From assembly GCA_030590185.1 (NCBI GenBank), contig JAUUZB010000248.1:1-6481 (forward strand): a stretch of 6,481 nucleotides of DNA, written 5' to 3'. Position numbers and translations under genes: made by a program. Source of the stretch: Deltaproteobacteria bacterium. Lineage in GTDB: Bacteria; Myxococcota; XYA12-FULL-58-9; JAUUZB01. This document shows, one piece after another, positions 1 through 6,481 of the stretch. The notes under the pieces are model-generated. The model was not told the origin of the DNA, did no database searches, and saw only the letters and a program-made list of their open reading frames with translations. Position 1 is the stretch's first letter. The number at the start of each line of letters is the position of its first letter.

Positions 1-3000
1 AACAGAGGGCGTAGTTGTTGGCGCTCCAGTTGTTGGGCCCGTTGGGGTTGGACCAATAGGCCGCCCGCAGAACGAAGGGCTGCGTCGAGCCGTGCGGACC
101 CTGGGGACCGGAGGTGGAGTTGCTCGCCACGCCGTTGGCGTCGGCGGTCTGTTCGTTGTTGTGACAATCGCGACAGCTGATCAGCGAGGCGGTGGTGAGA
201 CCGCCGAGTAGCTGGTCTTGCATGGCGCTCGAGGTGTTGCGCCCCGCCGCCGCCACGGGATGGAAGGAGCTGTTGGTCGGTTGGAAGTCGGTGCGCTTGT
301 TGGTGGTGCGCGCCCGGGCGCTGTTGAAGCTGTCGCCGTGACACTTGAAACAGATCTCGTACTCCTCGACGGCTGGCGTCGGGCCCACCGCCGCGCCGCT
401 CAGATCGAGACCCGTGGCCCCGGCGATCGGGTTTGCCGCGCTGGCCCAGTGCGGGTCGTGACAGTCGGCGCACTCGACGGTTCGCCCGGCGGACTGCTCC
501 GCGGCGAGCACCGGGTGATGAAAGACGTCGGTGCCGTTGGTGCCCTCGACCATCTCGGTCTCGATGTCGTGAACGGCGGGCGCGCCGGCGTGGCAGGCGT
601 AGCAGAGCGATTCTTCTATGTTGGCCACCGTCGTGCCGGCGACGTTCGCCGAGAGCAGGTGGTCGAAGTCGGCGCCGTGCACGATCTGGACGGCCGGCAA
701 ACCGGGGCGGGTGCTGTCGGTGCCGCCGTGGCAGGCGAGGCAGGCGTCATCGGCGAGGGCCGCCGGCGTGGCGGCGTTGTGTGAGGCGCTGGCCCAACCG
801 CTGGCGATGTCGGTGGGGGTGGTGCCGTCGAGGAACGGTTGCTGGCCATTGCCCGGGTTGCCGTCGCTGTCAAAGGCGAGGGGACCCGCGGCGTCGTGAC
901 AGCCGAGGCAGAAATCCTCGAGCACCGCCCCGTTGCCGTCGTAGGTGAGGGTGACGGTCGCGCCGGTATCCGGATCGTTCAAGTAAACCTCGGGCTCGGC
1001 CAAGGTCTGGTGGACGCCGAGGTTGTGACAGACCAGGCAGTCGTCACTCAGGATGGTCTCGGAGGCGCTGGCGTCATCGACGTGATGGCTCTGGAGATTG
1101 AAGTCACCCCCGGCGGTGACAATCTGACGCCGGTAGTCGCCCACCCCTTGGGTCGTTGAGTGGCAATTCAAGCAGGTGACGTTGACCGCGCCGTCGATGT
1201 GGAGATCCGCGTTGACCCACACCATCCCCGGGCCGATGACCGCGCCGTGACACTGGGGGCAGCCGCCCCCCACCGGATGGGTGCCGGTGGGCGGAAGCTG
1301 ATGGCAAGCTCCGCAGTTGGCCTGGGAGCCGTTCACCGTGGTCCAGGATGGGTAGGTGTTGTAGCCGCCGGGGATCAACGTCTCGCCGTGGCAATAATTG
1401 CTGCAGCCGTCACCGTCGAAGCTCGGTGTCGCCCCGTCGGCGGTGGCCAGCGGTCCCCAGGTGTGCTCCGCGGGTAGCGGGGTGTCGATGTGTCCTGGAT
1501 CGCCCATGGCGGTCGGCACCTGGTGGCACTCCTCACAGGTCACCGGCCCATGCCAGTTGGCGGGTGTCAGGTGGGACTGGTGCGCGCCGACCCCTGTCAA
1601 CGCCGTGCCGGCGTTGCCGCTAGTATCGACCGGGGGCGCCGGATCGCCGGCGCTGCCGTGACAGCTATCGCAGGCGAGCTCAATGACCTCCACCTGACCG
1701 TTGACGTGCAGGTCCGGCGCTACGAAGGTGTTGCCGGCGCCGATCACCATGCCGTGGCAGTTCTCGCAGTCGCTGCGCGACGGATGGGGCGAGCTCGGGG
1801 GATCGCCGTGACAGCTGTCGCAGGCGGATTGGCTGCCGTCCACCAGGGTCCACTGCGGAGTCAACGTCGTACCGCTGGCGCTGACCAGGGTGGCGCCGTG
1901 GCAGTAGAGGTTCGAGCAGGTCTCGCCCGCGAAGCTGGGCACGGCGCCGTCGGTCGTGGCCAACGGTCCCCAGGTGAGCTCCGCCGGCAGCGGGGTGTCG
2001 GTGTGCCCCGGGTCGTCGTTCGCAACCGGAACGACGTGGCAGGCTTCGCACGGGATCTCGAGGTGCCAATCCGACGGACCGAGGTGCTCGCGGTGGGCAC
2101 CGACCCCGACCGAAGTCGTCAACAGGCTGCCCTGCGTATCGATCGGCGGCGCGGCCACGCCGTTGCTGCCGTGGCAGGAGAAGCAATCGAGGTCATCCAC
2201 CTCGACCACCCCATTAACGTGCAGCTCCGGCGCCAGGAACACCGGGTCCACGCCGCTGACGTCGATCACGGCGCTGTGGCAGCGCTCGCAGTCGCTCTGC
2301 CCGACGTGGCCACCGAGGGGCGGCGCGCCGTGGCAGCTGTCGCACGCCGACTGGGTGCCGTCCACCAGGGTCCAGACCGGCTCGGTGACGACGCCACCGC
2401 CGTCGGTCAGGGTGGCGCCATGGCAGTAGACGCTGCTGCAGGTTTGGTCGGTGAGCACGGGCGCGGCGCCGTCGGTGAGGGCGAGGGGCCCCCAGGTGAG
2501 CTCCGCGGGCAGATCGGTGTCGATGTGGCCAGCGTCCTCCATCGCCACCGGCACCAGGTGACACGCCTCGCAGGTAACTTCCGCGTGCCAGGCGGAGACC
2601 CCGAGGTGCTCGCGGTGGGCGCCGACACCGGGCGCGGTGGTCACGGTGTTGCCGGACACGTCGTTGGGGGGCGCCGGATCTTCGTCGCCGCCGTGGCAGC
2701 TCCAACATTCGAGATCATCGACATCTAATGTTCCATCGACGTGGTGGCCATCGGCGATCAGGATGTCGCCACTCGCATCGACCGTGACGCTGTGGCAGCG
2801 GTCGCAATCGTCGCGGGCCAGGTGCGGCAACGGTGGCGGATCCCCGTGGCAGCTCTGACACTCGGATTGGGTGCCGTCCACGGTCGTCCAGACCGGGGTG
2901 GTCGCCTCGCCGCCGACCAGGGTCGCGCCATGGCAATAGCTGTCCGCGCAGGTGGCGGCGGTCCGGTCCCATACCGGGTCGGTCCCATGAAGGCTGGCGA

Positions 3001-3340
3001 GGCCGGAGAAGGTCACCTCCGCCGGCAGCGGATCGACGTGCCCCTCATCCTCGATCAAGGTCGGCACGACGTGACAGGCATCGCAATCTATGGCGGCGCG
3101 CACGTCGCCGTCGGTCAGGTGGGACTGGTGGGCGCCCACCCCGAGATCGCTAGGCTCCGAGCCCTCCGCCAGCGATACCGGCGGCGCGGCGTTGGCCTCA
3201 CCGCCGTGACAGGTCGAGCAGGTTAGATCGTCCGGCAGACCATCGGCCAGGCGATTGTCGTCGCAGCCGGTGAGGGCGGCAACAATCGCGGCTGAGACGA
3301 GCCAGGACCAACACGGCGACATGCGGAGCGTTGGGACCAT
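1..3340 (-). CDS. Giant multiheme c-type cytochrome lipoprotein (at least 28 hemes), 3' end beyond window
   Basis: The frame is open from the ATG at 3340 to the left edge: 1113 residues with no stop. I count 28 heme-binding motifs: 24 CXXCH, three CX4CH (Cys131, 301, 475) and one CX3CH (Cys646). The N-terminus has Arg6, a hydrophobic stretch (about 11-24) and a lipobox LTGC with Cys26, so it is probably a lipoprotein; Asp27 and Asp28 follow. Residues 41-722 form four five-heme repeats. Residues 723-1113 carry eight further motifs (Cys723, 768, 811, 867, 913, 957, 997, 1056), with HHPV at 941-944, a CADCHDPH paired-CXXCH-like segment and GPHGS at 1081-1085. The CX4CH...CXXCH pairs with a YCHG signature resemble the Geobacter CxxxxCH...CXXCH domain (TIGR01904 type, from memory). 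It is last in the visible operon and its ATG overlaps the preceding stop (TGATG), with GGGAG eight nt upstream; Met7 is an alternative start. The likely role, inferred, is the outer-surface electron terminus of a porin-cytochrome conduit; a giant periplasmic cytochrome is the alternative. The last visible codon is Cys1113, perhaps the start of another heme motif. Confidence 0.93.
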   Translation of the reverse strand, partial: MVPTLRMSPCWSWLVSAAIVAALTGCDDNRLADGLPDDLTCSTCHGGEANAAPPVSLAEGSEPSDLGVGAHQSHLTDGDVRAAIDCDACHVVPTLIEDEGHVDPLPAEVTFSGLASLHGTDPVWDRTAATCADSYCHGATLVGGEATTPVWTTVDGTQSECQSCHGDPPPLPHLARDDCDRCHSVTVDASGDILIADGHHVDGTLDVDDLECWSCHGGDEDPAPPNDVSGNTVTTAPGVGAHREHLGVSAWHAEVTCEACHLVPVAMEDAGHIDTDLPAELTWGPLALTDGAAPVLTDQTCSSVYCHGATLTDGGGVVTEPVWTLVDGTQSACDSCHGAPPLGGHVGQSDCERCHSAVIDVSGVDPVFLAPELHVNGVVEVDDLDCFSCHGSNGVAAPPIDTQGSLLTTSVGVGAHREHLGPSDWHLEIPCEACHVVPVANDDPGHTDTPLPAELTWGPLATTDGAVPSFAGETCSNLYCHGATLVSASGTTLTPQWTLVDGSQSACDSCHGDPPSSPHPSRSDCENCHGMVIGAGNTFVAPDLHVNGQVEVIELACDSCHGSAGDPAPPVDTSGNAGTALTGVGAHQSHLTPANWHGPVTCEECHQVPTAMGDPGHIDTPLPAEHTWGPLATADGATPSFDGDGCSNYCHGETLIPGGYNTYPSWTTVNGSQANCGACHQLPPTGTHPVGGGCPQCHGAVIGPGMVWVNADLHIDGAVNVTCLNCHSTTQGVGDYRRQIVTAGGDFNLQSHHVDDASASETILSDDCLVCHNLGVHQTLAEPEVYLNDPDTGATVTLTYDGNGAVLEDFCLGCHDAAGPLAFDSDGNPGNGQQPFLDGTTPTDIASGWASASHNAATPAALADDACLACHGGTDSTRPGLPAVQIVHGADFDHLLSANVAGTTVANIEESLCYACHAGAPAVHDIETEMVEGTNGTDVFHHPVLAAEQSAGRTVECADCHDPHWASAANPIAGATGLDLSGAAVGPTPAVEEYEICFKCHGDSFNSARARTTNKRTDFQPTNSSFHPVAAAGRNTSSAMQDQLLGGLTTASLISCRDCHNNEQTADANGVASNSTSGPQGPHGSTQPFVLRAAYWSNPNGPNNWSANNYALC
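1175..3220 (-). repeat. Four tandem five-heme repeat units within the giant cytochrome
   Basis: Units are residues 41-211 (3220-2708), 212-385 (2707-2186), 386-556 (2185-1673) and 557-722 (1672-1175), giving periods of 171, 174, 171 and 166 residues. Each unit runs: CXXCH, then GVGAHxxHL, C-D/E-A/E-CH, GHxD, LPAE and (units 2-4) TWGPLA, a CX4CH-type site with YCHG, a W-T-x-V-D/N-G segment, CXXCH, an isolated His, CXXCH, and a closing H-x-D/N-G segment. Units 2 and 3 look closest: at DNA level they share identical 20-nt (2079-2098 and 2601-2620) and 18-nt (1835-1852 and 2357-2374) stretches exactly 522 bp apart. The pattern indicates duplication of a five-heme module. Unit 1 lacks the TWGPLA segment, and unit 4 has a shortened heme motif. 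Confidence 0.9.
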
Positions 3341-4587
3341 CACTGATTCTCCCGGTGGCAGGCGATGCAGGTGGCGGGGCGATGACACACTAAACAGGTC
3401 TCGTTGGCGCGACTGACGGCGCTCAGGCCGTGGATGGCAGACCAGGCGCCGCGGTGATTGAGCGGCGTGGTGGTCTGGTGGCAACGGACGCATTGACCGG
3501 TCTCGTGGCAAGTTTTGCAGCTCTCCCGATCCCAGGCCGCGGCGGCGCCGTGGCTGCGCTGTCGCCACAAGCCGGTGTGGCTGCGCGGCATCTCCACCCG
3601 GTGGCAGGCATCGCAGGTGGCGGGACGATGGCAGCTTCGGCAATTATCGCCGTGACCCCCCAACCCCAACCACCGGGCGTCCCTGCCGTGACCGGCTCGC
3701 CAGCTGGAGCGGTGATTATTCGGTTCCATGCGCTTGGCGTCCACGCCGTGGCAGGCGGCGCAGGCGGCCTTGCCCGGGGAGACGTCCCGATCGCCGTGGC
3801 AGGCGAAGCATCTCTCGGCGGTGAGATCGGTGGCACCGTGGGCGTCGCCGTCGTCGACCGCGGCCGCGTGACAGTCGCCGCAGGGAACCGCCCGGGCGTG
3901 CTTGGCGTGGGGAAAGTCTACCGGCAGGCGAGTCCGCCGGGGCTCTGGTTGAGCGTCGTGGCAACCATCGCAGCTCGGCGGCAGGGCCTCGATGCCGTTT
4001 TCCTCGTGACAGGAAAAGCAGTGGCCAGCACCAGAGATCACTTCGCCGTGGCGGCCCGGCGGCGCCGCCCGGTGGCAGTCGGTGCAGTCAAAGGAGTCAG
4101 CGTGCGAACCGTGGGGCAGGCTGTAGACCATGCCCCTGGCGGCGGAATCGAAATCCGGGACCTCGCTGTGGCAGCCGCTGCAATTGCCTGGCGGCAGCTC
4201 GATGCCGTTGTCGTCGTGGCAGGCGTGGCAGGCCTTGGCGTCCATCTTTTTCCCCGCGCCATCCTCTGGGATCGACGGGTGGCAATCGGCGCACTCGAGG
4301 GAGTCGGCGTGCAGGCCGTGGGGGAACGTCGCCCGCAGCGCCGTTACCGCCTGCGGGACGCTGTACCCGGTCGGAGCTTCGTCGTGGCATTCGAGGCACT
4401 GGGCTTTTTTGAGCGTCGGGCGACCCTTGCCGAGCACGTGGCACCCGTCGCAACCGAGCTCATCATCCATCTCGAAATGCTCTCGGTGTGAGAAGACCGG
4501 GGGCCCCTCGGCCAACACCAGGGCGGCCACGCCGAACAGGAGGAGGCCACTCGCCCAGGCTGCGATTTGTGTGCGCTGTGCCATCAT
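3340..4587 (-). CDS. Periplasmic 17-heme c-type cytochrome, conduit partner
   Basis: This 415-residue protein has an N-terminal signal peptide (hydrophobic core about 12-25, likely cut after VLA at residue 26) and no lipobox, so it should be a soluble periplasmic protein. I count 17 CXXCH motifs, at Cys46, 64, 99, 120, 136, 168, 190, 206, 236, 260, 276, 316, 325, 357, 366, 398 and 407. The first half has one two-heme and three three-heme units, each opened by an S/P-H-x-x-H pair, like cytochrome c7/c3-type multiheme repeats. The second half has three CXXCH doublets, the first two followed by a P-x-x-H-x-x-x-W segment, a pattern I recall from Geobacter multiheme cytochromes. The start overlaps the barrel stop (ATGA); a second ATG follows directly and changes only one residue. 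GAGGTG lies five nt upstream. By position and architecture it would match the OmaB or MtrA role of passing electrons from the periplasm into the barrel. That role is inferred; the heme count is seen directly. Confidence 0.93.
   Translation of the reverse strand: MMAQRTQIAAWASGLLLFGVAALVLAEGPPVFSHREHFEMDDELGCDGCHVLGKGRPTLKKAQCLECHDEAPTGYSVPQAVTALRATFPHGLHADSLECADCHPSIPEDGAGKKMDAKACHACHDDNGIELPPGNCSGCHSEVPDFDSAARGMVYSLPHGSHADSFDCTDCHRAAPPGRHGEVISGAGHCFSCHEENGIEALPPSCDGCHDAQPEPRRTRLPVDFPHAKHARAVPCGDCHAAAVDDGDAHGATDLTAERCFACHGDRDVSPGKAACAACHGVDAKRMEPNNHRSSWRAGHGRDARWLGLGGHGDNCRSCHRPATCDACHRVEMPRSHTGLWRQRSHGAAAAWDRESCKTCHETGQCVRCHQTTTPLNHRGAWSAIHGLSAVSRANETCLVCHRPATCIACHRENQ
3343..3720 (-). repeat. 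Three tandem CXXCH-doublet repeats in the 17-heme cytochrome
   Basis: Residues 290-415 contain doublets at Cys316/325, 357/366 and 398/407, exactly 41 residues apart, with nine residues between the cysteines that open each pair. Each doublet is preceded by an x-x-H-x-x-x-W-x-x-x-(x)-H-G segment (His292/Trp296/His300, His337/Trp341/His346, His378/Trp382/His386). The protein ends five residues after the last heme histidine begins its tail, so no extra C-terminal domain exists. Confidence 0.85.
3349..3353 (-). promoter_or_regulatory. Ribosome binding site of the giant cytochrome gene
   Basis: The minus strand reads GGGAG, then eight nt, then ATG at 3340. The site lies inside the last codons of the 17-heme gene, so initiation at 3340 is probably coupled to termination at the overlapping TGA. 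It supports Met1 over the internal Met7. Confidence 0.55.
3739..4326 (-). repeat. Three tandem three-heme repeats in the 17-heme cytochrome
   Basis: Residues 88-156, 157-224 and 225-283 each open with F/L-P-H-x-x-H (His90/93, 159/162, 227/230) and carry three CXXCH motifs (Cys99/120/136, 168/190/206, 236/260/276). The period is 68-69 residues. The first two copies also share an N-G-I-E segment between the second and third hemes. The paired histidines upstream are natural candidates for distal heme ligands, as in cytochrome c7-type repeats. Confidence 0.85.
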
Positions 4588-6128
4588 CCCCCCACCTCGA
4601 AGGCTTGGGTGAAGCTCAAGATGATCGTGTGCAGGTCACGGTCGCTGCGCTCGAACAGGTAGCGGGCCTTGAATTTCAGACCGTCGAGGGGCTCGACGTG
4701 GGCCGAAAGATAGACCGTGCGCACGTTCTGAAGCTCGTCGATGTCTACATAATAGACGTACTTGAAACGCTGGTAGTAGCTGCCGATCTCCCCACCGATC
4801 CAGCCGTGGTCGTAGCCGGCGCTACCGCCCACGGTCAGCAGACCATCGTCGATGATGCTGCCGTCGTGGTGGTACTCCAGGCTGGCGGAGGCGGACAGCC
4901 CGGGCAGGATCAGGTCCTCCACCTCGGCCATCAGGTAGATCCGCCCGTAGCTGCGATTGAAGGCGCCGCTCTCCCCCTCGAGGGGCTCACGCCCGCCCCA
5001 CCCGAGGTGCAGGCCCCAGTCACCGACGATGGTGTCAAAGCGCTTCCAGGCGTCCACCTTCCACCGCACCCGGGGCTGGCTCTCGCCGAGCACCGCAAAG
5101 TAGGGGTCGTTGAGCTCGTTGAGCTCACCGAGCACCGAGAGCTGAAAGTCGACGTCGCTGTCGAGACCGATCGTCCATGGCTCCCAGATGAGCCGCGTGG
5201 AGGTACCGAGGCTGGCGAGGGCGTCGTTGACCCCGCGGCCGTAGGCCTTCAGAAACACGGCGTCGATCGGCCGGTACCAAGCGGTGAGGCCATAGTTGTG
5301 ATCGATATCCGCCGCGGCCGAATCCTCGGCCAGCAGACGGTAATCCAGGGAGATGCGCAGGTCGCTCAGGGGCCGCACCTGCACGCCGGCGGAGCCGATC
5401 CAATCTTCGAACAGCTCGTCATCGAGCTCGTAGAAGTGGGCGGTGCGACCGCCGAACAGGAAGAACTCCAGGCTGCGCACCGCGAGGACGTCGGTGGCGG
5501 TGGTGATGAAGGGCCGAATGGTCACCGAGGCGCCGTCGAAGATCACCGGCGCGCCGTGCTCGGTGCTGAGCCGGCCGGCCTTGAGGGACTCGAGCCAGGT
5601 GCGGTTGGTGTAGTGCCCGGCGAGGCTGTAGACGTCGACCCAAACGCCCGACTCATTGTCCCGCACGGAGCCGTAGGACCGGGGTCGCGGCGTGGTGTTG
5701 ACGCCGTCGAGGTCGACCCACATCGCCATCACGCCGTCCCCACCGAGCTCCCCGTCCGGGCCGGACAGGCCGAGGTCGAGGAGGAAGCGGAGATCTTGGT
5801 CCGAGGCGTTTTGGGTGTCGGCGTAGATGTTCGCCGGGACGGTGAGGTCGATCGGTAGGGTGTGCCGGTGACGGTAGCCCTCGGTGGCGGTGATCCAGAA
5901 ACGCAGGCCGTCGAGGAGGCCGGGCTCGGGCTCGGTCGTTGTCTCTGTCGCCGTCTCTGTCGCCACCTCCGTCTCCGGCGTGTCGGCCGCGGCGGTGGCG
6001 TCGATCACCTCGGCAGCAGCGGTTGGCTCGGCACGGGCGGAACTGGCCGACGCGAGCAGCGCTACCGCCAGGCAAGCGTGCATCGCGTTGTTGTGCAGAC
6101 ACCCCCCGGTGACTCCCGAGTCTCTCAC
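4584..6128 (-). CDS. Outer-membrane beta-barrel protein, porin of a porin-cytochrome conduit
   Basis: This 514-residue protein starts with GTG at 6128, preceded by AGGGG with a five-nt spacer; an internal ATG (residue 16, 6083-6081) has no good ribosome site. The signal peptide core is about 17-30, with likely cleavage after ARA at residue 33. Residues 34-69 form an acidic, Thr/Ala-rich linker. From about 70 to 510 the chain alternates short amphipathic strands with turns rich in Gly, Asp and Asn (for example 112-140, 160-190, 195-265, 275-300, 395-510), as expected of an outer-membrane barrel. A segment at 183-207 (KAGR...FDG...IRPF) resembles wording common in porin-like proteins. The mature chain has no cysteine, so it binds no heme c and lacks the N-terminal CXXC known from MtrB. 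It is first in the coupled operon with two multiheme cytochromes, which suggests a conduit sheath like OmbB. I do not recognise the exact family; a general porin is the alternative. Confidence 0.85.
   Translation of the reverse strand: MRDSGVTGGCLHNNAMHACLAVALLASASSARAEPTAAAEVIDATAAADTPETEVATETATETTTEPEPGLLDGLRFWITATEGYRHRHTLPIDLTVPANIYADTQNASDQDLRFLLDLGLSGPDGELGGDGVMAMWVDLDGVNTTPRPRSYGSVRDNESGVWVDVYSLAGHYTNRTWLESLKAGRLSTEHGAPVIFDGASVTIRPFITTATDVLAVRSLEFFLFGGRTAHFYELDDELFEDWIGSAGVQVRPLSDLRISLDYRLLAEDSAAADIDHNYGLTAWYRPIDAVFLKAYGRGVNDALASLGTSTRLIWEPWTIGLDSDVDFQLSVLGELNELNDPYFAVLGESQPRVRWKVDAWKRFDTIVGDWGLHLGWGGREPLEGESGAFNRSYGRIYLMAEVEDLILPGLSASASLEYHHDGSIIDDGLLTVGGSAGYDHGWIGGEIGSYYQRFKYVYYVDIDELQNVRTVYLSAHVEPLDGLKFKARYLFERSDRDLHTIILSFTQAFEVGG
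4592..4598 (-). promoter_or_regulatory. Ribosome binding site of the 17-heme cytochrome gene
   Basis: The minus strand reads GAGGTGG followed by further G residues and then ATGATG. GAGGTG is a six-base match to the anti-Shine-Dalgarno complement and lies five nt before the first ATG (4587) and eight before the second (4584), so either ATG could serve. The site is embedded in the last codons of the barrel gene. Confidence 0.65.
5941..5964 (-). repeat. Two perfect tandem 12-bp copies in the linker of the barrel gene
   Basis: The plus strand reads GTCTCTGTCGCC twice in a row. On the coding strand this gives two Ala-Thr-Glu-Thr copies in frame within the acidic Thr-rich linker (about residues 56-63), after the signal peptide. 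A multiple of three in length, it can expand or contract without shifting the frame, so linker length may vary between strains. Confidence 0.7.
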
Positions 6129-6239: not shown

Positions 6240-6481
6240 TCAGCGTTTGGTGCTCGCCCGCAGCGCCTCCCGCACCAACACCGCGAGATCGGTTTCGCCC
6301 GCGTGATCACTCAGCGCCGCCTCCGCCGCCTTGGCCGACGACGCTGGGTTGAACCCGAGATCCGCGAGCGCCGCCGCGAGATCGTTGCGCAGGCTCGCCG
6401 CCGGGGACGCCGCTTCGGACGCGGGCAACCGGCCCCGCAGCTCCAACAACAAACGTTGGGCCTTCTTCTTGCCCACCCCCG
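6240..6481 (-). CDS. ruvA: Holliday junction branch migration protein RuvA, C-terminal part (5' end beyond window)
   Basis: The visible 80 codons begin inside a helix-hairpin-helix motif (GVGKKKAQRLLLEL), the form found in RuvA domain II, which contacts DNA. A flexible Ala/Ser/Pro-rich linker follows, then a domain III-like segment (LRNDLAAALADLGFNP... to ...LAVLVREALRAS) of the type that binds the RuvB motor. The protein ends with TGA at 6240. RuvA tetramers hold Holliday junctions while RuvB drives branch migration. The first complete codon is GGG at 6479-6477; the GTG at 6476 is an internal Val, not a start. It is a housekeeping neighbour with no apparent functional tie to the cytochrome genes. 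Confidence 0.9.
   Translation of the reverse strand, partial: GVGKKKAQRLLLELRGRLPASEAASPAASLRNDLAAALADLGFNPASSAKAAEAALSDHAGETDLAVLVREALRASTKR

What the first reader, a model, noticed from the sequence alone, without database searches (positions are those of the whole stretch)
1..6128. Three-gene porin-cytochrome conduit with at least 45 hemes encoded in about 6 kb
Seen: a barrel gene, a 17-heme exported cytochrome and a lipoprotein cytochrome with at least 28 heme motifs, coupled by overlapping start/stop codons. Known: this gene logic defines outer-membrane electron conduits (OmbB-OmaB-OmcB, MtrCAB). Both cytochromes carry more hemes than the characterised partners I recall (MtrA and MtrC 10 each, OmcB 12). 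Inference: an extracellular electron transfer conduit with an unusually long outer or inner heme wire.
Basis: partly seen in the sequence, partly recalled or inferred. Interest (0 to 1): 0.8.

Follow-up and report, generated by a model that had tools for sequence, protein, structure and literature searches.

The report
Heme-wire conduit with extendable periplasmic arm
Three linked bacterial genes encode an outer-membrane pore and two heme-rich 'wire' proteins that probably carry electrons out of or into the cell, and relatives of one wire come in several set lengths built from repeated blocks on a nearly constant end piece.

Summary
The minus strand carries a 514-aa outer-membrane barrel, a 415-aa exported cytochrome with 17 CxxCH motifs, and a lipoprotein cytochrome that runs off the window after 28 motifs (24 CxxCH, 1 CxxxCH, 3 CxxxxCH); the genes overlap at start/stop codons. 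It is most likely a porin-cytochrome electron conduit: a multiheme cytochrome gene follows the barrel in 20 of 20 testable related loci, barrel and inner cytochrome co-occur (17 of 18 barrel genomes, 0 of 554 others, cut-off set after seeing the gap), and the barrel model has 22 strands. High heme counts are not new; published PCC3 conduits carry as many or more. What I did not find described, within the paper searches made, is how the inner wire is built: a C-terminal six-heme tail with nearly fixed spacing, and an N-terminal arm that is usually five hemes (11 in all) but grows to 14 and 17 (window) by triheme modules, to 18 and 25 by seven-heme blocks, and in one locus is a different 24-heme arm (30). 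I infer that the tail plugs the barrel and the arm reaches into the periplasm; neither was shown. New variant of a known kind, found so far in Myxococcota-type metagenome-assembled genomes.

The parts
4584..6128 (-). Outer-membrane beta-barrel gene, 514 aa (start GTG 6128; an in-frame ATG lies near 6083), 22 strands in the model, no Pfam or NCBIfam family
3340..4587 (-). Inner (periplasmic) cytochrome gene, 415 aa, signal peptide, 17 CxxCH
4162..4335 (-). Triheme module 1 of the N-terminal arm (hemes 3-5)
3952..4128 (-). Triheme module 2 (hemes 6-8), 26 of 55 aligned columns identical to module 1
3742..3918 (-). Triheme module 3 (hemes 9-11), 20 of 56 identical to module 1
3355..3642 (-). C-terminal six-heme tail (hemes 12-17) with spacing 9,32,9,32,9, preceded by a 40-residue step; proposed barrel plug
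   Evidence: the plug role is inference
2..3340 (-). Outer cytochrome gene, lipoprotein, at least 1113 aa and 28 heme motifs, cut off by the window edge
1175..3220 (-). Four five-heme repeats of the outer cytochrome (CxxCH, CxxCH, CxxxxCH or CxxxCH, CxxCH, CxxCH; period about 172 aa)
158..1174 (-). Further 8 CxxCH of the outer cytochrome, less regular
6240..6479 (-). C-terminal part of ruvA upstream; neighbour, not part of the conduit

Best explanation
An operon for a trans-outer-membrane electron conduit. The 22-strand barrel is an insulating sleeve. The 17-heme exported protein is the inner wire: its C-terminal six-heme tail sits in the barrel and its N-terminal arm of c7-like triheme modules reaches into the periplasm to take electrons from (or give them to) inner-membrane quinol-linked cytochromes. 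The lipoprotein with at least 28 hemes caps the barrel outside and exchanges electrons with an external acceptor or donor. Arm length varies between relatives in module steps while barrel and tail stay the same. Shown: genes, motifs, modular spacing, conserved linkage. Inferred: complex formation, tail-in-barrel placement, electron flow and its direction, substrate.
For: Linkage: multiheme cytochrome gene next to the barrel in 20 of 20 testable loci; a CxxxxCH-type lipoprotein cytochrome next to or one gene from the barrel in 17 of 17 loci whose contig continues (4 others cut off). Co-occurrence: barrel in 18 of 572 genomes; inner-cytochrome match at E<=1e-43 in 17 of these 18 (the 18th, G425, has its barrel cut by a contig end) and 0 of 554 others, next best 5e-37 and 3e-39, Fisher p 1e-31. 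Outer lipoprotein: lipobox-like Cys then a VGAHxxH(L/V) motif in 15 of 17 relatives plus the window. Module grammar. Barrel model pLDDT 81, 22 strands. Quinol-side partners beside some relatives: NrfH-like, cytochrome b561-multiheme and TmcA-like proteins at L004 and an NrfH-like one at L015.
Against: No experiment; no complex predicted; the inner-cytochrome model is poor (pLDDT 65). No sequence match of the barrel to a known conduit porin; fold matches are to ushers, TonB-type receptors and porins, so the fold does not single out a conduit. In L013 the gene after the barrel is the outer type and the tail-bearing 30-heme gene comes one later. The co-occurrence cut-off was chosen after seeing the scores and only a few candidates per genome were scored. 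The genomes are related to one another, so the p-value overstates.
Confidence: 0.85

Rival explanations
1. The barrel is a solute porin or transporter and the cytochromes form a separate electron store in the periplasm and on the surface.
For: Best Foldseek matches are substrate porins (chitoporin, Occ family, AlgE) and VIA-align gives ushers and TonB-type receptors; no match to a conduit porin family.
Against: Cytochrome next to the barrel in 20 of 20 testable loci and barrel/cytochrome co-occurrence. Generic barrel folds match each other, so the fold hits carry little weight.
Confidence: 0.07
2. It is a conduit, but the long arm is a heme store (capacitor) rather than a longer wire; arm length then reflects charge capacity, not distance.
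For: The triheme modules resemble c7/nanowire domains (TIGR04257 at 38 bits, cut-off 40); GSU1996, a periplasmic protein of four triheme domains, is described as a capacitor (PMC10138318 passages). A test for loss of small TmcA-like carriers in long-arm genomes was not significant (0 of 3 against 6 of 13, p 0.25).
Against: The arm is covalently joined to the tail, which suggests conduction through it. Not decisive.
Confidence: 0.3
3. It is an ordinary member of the PCC3 group of conduits found in Proteobacteria.
For: Same three-part logic, many hemes, low residue-to-heme ratio: 22.9 mature residues per heme for the window's inner protein against 22-39 in PCC3 (PMC5566968).
Against: Most PCC3 porins have many strands (up to 42), here 22. 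The PCC3 inner-membrane protein was not seen in the window; relatives were not searched for it. Homology of the porins could not be tested because no PCC3 sequence was at hand.
Confidence: 0.15

Closest known systems
PCC3 porin-cytochrome clusters (PMC5566968, PMC10734462; passages seen)
   Same: Porin, inner and outer multiheme cytochromes in one cluster; very many hemes; repeats; low residue-to-heme ratio
   Different: [quoted passage not shown] here a 22-strand model, inner wire usually 11 hemes, Myxococcota-type genomes
MtrCAB / MtoAB / PioAB
   Same: Sleeve barrel, inner cytochrome, outer lipoprotein cytochrome (logic)
   Different: 10 + 10 hemes and a 26-strand MtrB (PMC12133095 passage); no TIGR03509 or DmsE-family match above cut-off here
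Geobacter Pcc: OmbB-OmaB-OmcB and ExtABCD/ExtEFG/ExtHIJKL (PMC4245776, PMC6148476; passages seen)
   Same: Barrel plus inner and outer multiheme cytochromes; PMC4245776 also reports two-gene pcc clusters with 12- or 14-heme inner cytochromes in Anaeromyxobacter, a myxobacterium
TIGR01904 / PF09698 CxxxxCH-CxxCH cytochromes
   Same: The outer protein carries four matched stretches, 120.5 bits against a cut-off of 27
   Different: Domain family only; says nothing about partners
GSU1996-type triheme-repeat periplasmic cytochromes (PMC10138318 passages)
   Same: Tandem c7-like triheme modules; the arm matches TIGR04257 just below cut-off
   Different: Here the modules are fused to a six-heme tail beside a barrel gene

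Membership tests
Porin-cytochrome conduit (functional class) | Outer-membrane barrel gene beside an exported multiheme cytochrome gene | tested here: met
Porin-cytochrome conduit (functional class) | Linkage conserved across relatives | tested here: met
   20 of 20 testable loci; co-occurrence 17 of 18 against 0 of 554
Porin-cytochrome conduit (functional class) | Cytochrome sits inside the barrel and passes electrons across the membrane | not testable with these tools
   no complex or heme modelling; the single-chain cytochrome model was poor
MtrAB/MtoAB/PioAB | Barrel of the MtrB/PioB family (TIGR03509) | tested here: not met
   0 NCBIfam and 0 Pfam families at E<=0.1 for the window barrel. 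The genome search with TIGR03509 was uninformative because no control rang
MtrAB/MtoAB/PioAB | DmsE/MtrA-family decaheme inner cytochrome (TIGR03508) | tested here: not met
   17 bits, cut-off 192.2; 17 hemes
PCC3 | Porin, inner and outer cytochromes with very many hemes | tested here: met
   17 and at least 28 against medians 21 and 34
PCC3 | Conserved inner-membrane protein with five helices in the cluster | not tested
   window ends inside the outer cytochrome; relatives not scanned for it
PCC3 | Porin sequence homologous to PCC3 porins | not testable with these tools
   no PCC3 sequence could be fetched
Geobacter OmbB-OmaB-OmcB / Ext | Sequence homology of components | not testable with these tools
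   no Geobacter conduit sequence could be fetched; no named family matched the barrel
TIGR01904 CxxxxCH/CxxCH cytochromes | Domain match above curated cut-off | tested here: met
   outer cytochrome 120.5 bits, cut-off 27, four stretches

The most novel reading that the evidence does not exclude
One orthologous conduit has evolved a set of wire lengths: the same barrel and six-heme plug carry a periplasmic arm of 5, 8, 11, 12, 19 or 24 hemes, gained separately in several lineages by adding whole heme modules. The longest arms would be long enough to bridge the periplasm and connect the outer membrane directly to the quinol pool, replacing diffusing carriers. The window's 11-heme arm is an intermediate.
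Probability: 0.3. Interest if true: 0.75.

Novelty: new variant of a known kind. Interest (0 to 1): 0.5.

Why it matters
Whether outer-membrane conduits are fed by diffusing carriers or by a wire that spans the periplasm is unsettled. A family with the same barrel and plug but arms of different module number is a ready series for testing how wire length affects rate and partner use. It also adds a barrel family without any Pfam or NCBIfam model, and a fused-module design, to the catalogue of conduits.

Tried and rejected
Chance motifs: rejected by shuffling. Antisense ORFs as genes: GC peaks at codon position 1, so not supported. Heme number itself as the novelty: rejected, published conduits have more. 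DNA tandem repeats and RNA families in the window: none.

Structure of the inner cytochrome: the model was too poor to use (pLDDT 65, pTM 0.38), and no fold search was made with it. Fold search of the barrel gave general barrels; no MtrB among the 50 rows listed in each, which shows nothing either way. The A2 profile against PDB sequences gave only three weak unrelated hits, best 5e-4 to ATP phosphoribosyltransferase, taken as chance. A third protein search with the barrel alignment added no new proteins.

Do long-arm genomes lack small TmcA-like carriers? At E<=1e-13, 6 of 13 eleven-heme genomes and 0 of 3 longer-arm genomes have one, p 0.25: not supported (the script's label says 1e-14, but one of the six, G003, is at 3.2e-14). 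G309 has a match, but its wire length is unknown and it was left out. NapC/NirT-family proteins occur in 15 of 17 of these genomes, so they do not separate the groups either.

Trees: the inner-cytochrome tree (65 rows, 192 columns) has 21 of 62 inner branches open; the 18- and 25-heme rows sit in its unresolved part, and the fewest-changes count of 10 includes some rows that look incomplete (for example P0023, P0069, P0074). In the 30-row barrel tree L013's placement beside L037 is not starred.

Paper searches answered. None of the listings or passages that I saw describes this barrel family or the module series; listings were capped (for example 15 of 185) and subscription journals are mostly missing.
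Full report
What is in the window. All three genes lie on the minus strand behind the end of ruvA (6240-6479). The barrel (4584-6128) and the inner cytochrome (3340-4587) share ATGA; the inner cytochrome and the outer lipoprotein (from 3340 or 3343 to the window edge) share TGATG or GTGA. Counts are 17 CxxCH, and 24 CxxCH + 1 CxxxCH + 3 CxxxxCH, far above shuffled sequence. The outer protein consists of four five-heme repeats of about 172 residues, in which the third motif is CxxxxCH (three times) or CxxxCH (once), followed by 8 further CxxCH. The outer protein scores 120.5 bits for TIGR01904 (cut-off 27); the inner one matches cytochrome c7/c3 Pfam families. The barrel matches no Pfam or NCBIfam family at E<=0.1.

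Relatives. A protein search gave 11 relatives of the barrel besides itself. A scan of genome contigs with two peptide patterns gave 16 loci, all from metagenome-assembled genomes titled Deltaproteobacteria, Myxococcota, Myxococcales, Polyangiaceae or uncultured (delta)proteobacterium. Whole-genome searches found the barrel in 9 of 195 and 9 of 377 genomes of two phylum-level groups; several of these are the same records as. I fetched five more stretches.

Gene order. Over 21 loci (L001-L016, L036-L040), one (L016) ends inside the barrel. In the other 20 the next gene is a multiheme cytochrome: the tail-bearing inner type in 19 (incomplete in L001 and L003), the outer type in L013. The CxxxxCH-type outer gene is present beside the group in 17 of 17 loci whose contig goes on: upstream in L002, upstream on the other strand in L007, only its start in L009; L001, L003, L004 and L016 are cut off. 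L003 and L008 are close relatives and not independent. In 15 of the 17 the outer protein shows a lipobox-like Cys followed by VGAHxxH(L/V); L015 has that motif further in and L009 is too short. Complete outer proteins of relatives carry 10 to 30 motifs.

Co-occurrence. With the inner-cytochrome alignment A3, 17 of the 18 barrel genomes have a match at E<=1e-43; the exception, G425, has its barrel cut by a contig end. None of the other 554 genomes reaches that value; their best is 5e-37 and 3e-39. Fisher p is 1e-31, with the caveats that the cut-off was set after the fact, that few candidates per genome were scored (12 or 6), and that genomes are related.

The wire series. In 18 of 20 inner cytochromes beside a barrel the last seven hemes are spaced 40,9,32,9,32,9 within 4 residues; the other two run off their contigs. 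47 of 120 listed database hits of the inner cytochrome show the same. The usual protein has 11 hemes: 18-21, 35, 24, 16 and then the tail. Of 18 complete relatives (L013 included) 14 have 11 hemes, and one each has 14 (L005), 18 (L006), 25 (L008) and 30 (L013). The window has 17, as does database protein P0014; P0051 has 14; P0015 and P0022 have 18. In the window two extra triheme modules stand before the tail: modules 1-2 share 26 of 55 and 1-3 share 20 of 56 aligned columns (0 of 500 shuffles that keep C and H in place score as high), while modules 2-3 share 20 of 55 (10 of 500). In L008 three seven-heme blocks stand in a row; blocks 1-2 are identical at 96 of 169 and blocks 2-3 at 100 of 164 columns. 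L013's 30-heme protein keeps the tail spacing 9,32,9,32,9 after a 49-residue step, but its arm has other spacing, as have P0064, P0079 and P0086.

History. In the tail tree the two 17-heme proteins pair (91/83), the two 14-heme proteins pair (100/97, starred), and L013 groups with P0064, P0069 and P0074 (100/100, starred); the 18/25 rows are unresolved. In the barrel tree the window's barrel groups with L036 (11 hemes; 96/84, starred), L008 (25) lies in a starred clade with L007 (11), and L013 (30) beside L037 (11; 91/97). So long arms are scattered among 11-heme relatives; separate gains are the likely reading, not a proven one.

How it probably works. By analogy with MtrCAB the barrel insulates and the inner cytochrome threads it. 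That the tail is the plug is inferred from its constancy next to a constant barrel; that the C-terminal end of MtrA faces MtrC is recalled, not from a call. Taking 104 A for the ten hemes of MtrA (PMC4245776 passage), arms outside the tail would be about 52 A (11-heme), 114 A (window), 198 A (25) and 250 A (30), against a periplasm of about 200 A (PMC7096707 passage). This is arithmetic, not a measurement. Quinol-side partners lie beside some relatives (L004, L015). Direction and substrate are unknown.

What is known. PCC3 clusters have medians of 34 outer and 21 inner hemes, up to 85 in one protein, and a residue-to-heme ratio of 22-39 (passages of PMC5566968); PMC10734462 (passages) already suggests that PCC3 inner cytochromes of 21-27 hemes may span the periplasm. 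PMC4245776 (passages) reports two-gene pcc clusters with 12- or 14-heme inner cytochromes in Anaeromyxobacter. So a many-heme conduit, a long inner wire and a conduit in a myxobacterium are each known; the barrel family here and the module series were not in what I saw. Searches for such reports.

Noticed in passing
P0058, P0061, P0066, P0067, P0068, P0080, P0082 (database proteins): NapC/NirT-type (PF03264) proteins of 660-724 aa carrying 28 or 32 heme motifs; in the two whose spacing I printed (P0058, P0066) the motifs follow a diheme repeat (about 9 + 30 residues) like that of the window's tail. Possibly an inner-membrane anchored wire reaching outwards.
   Followed up: no
P0077-P0130 in part (for example P0099, P0106, P0084): A 13-heme family of about 335-350 aa, some named Planctomycetota, with the same triheme and diheme spacing but a different C-terminal end; size and heme number recall the 12-14-heme Pcc proteins of Anaeromyxobacter and Kuenenia in PMC4245776.
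   Followed up: partly
L002:14842-18648, L004:2036-4906, L012:15216-19079: Further large surface-type multiheme proteins near the conduit: two with bacterial Ig-like domains (Big_2), one OmcA/MtrC-like at 180 bits, below the 209.3 cut-off.
   Followed up: partly
L013:6287-12896: Changed gene order: barrel, outer cytochrome with 12 motifs, then a 30-heme tail-bearing protein.
   Followed up: partly
window 6240-6479 (-): C-terminal part of ruvA lies directly upstream of the barrel gene.
   Followed up: no
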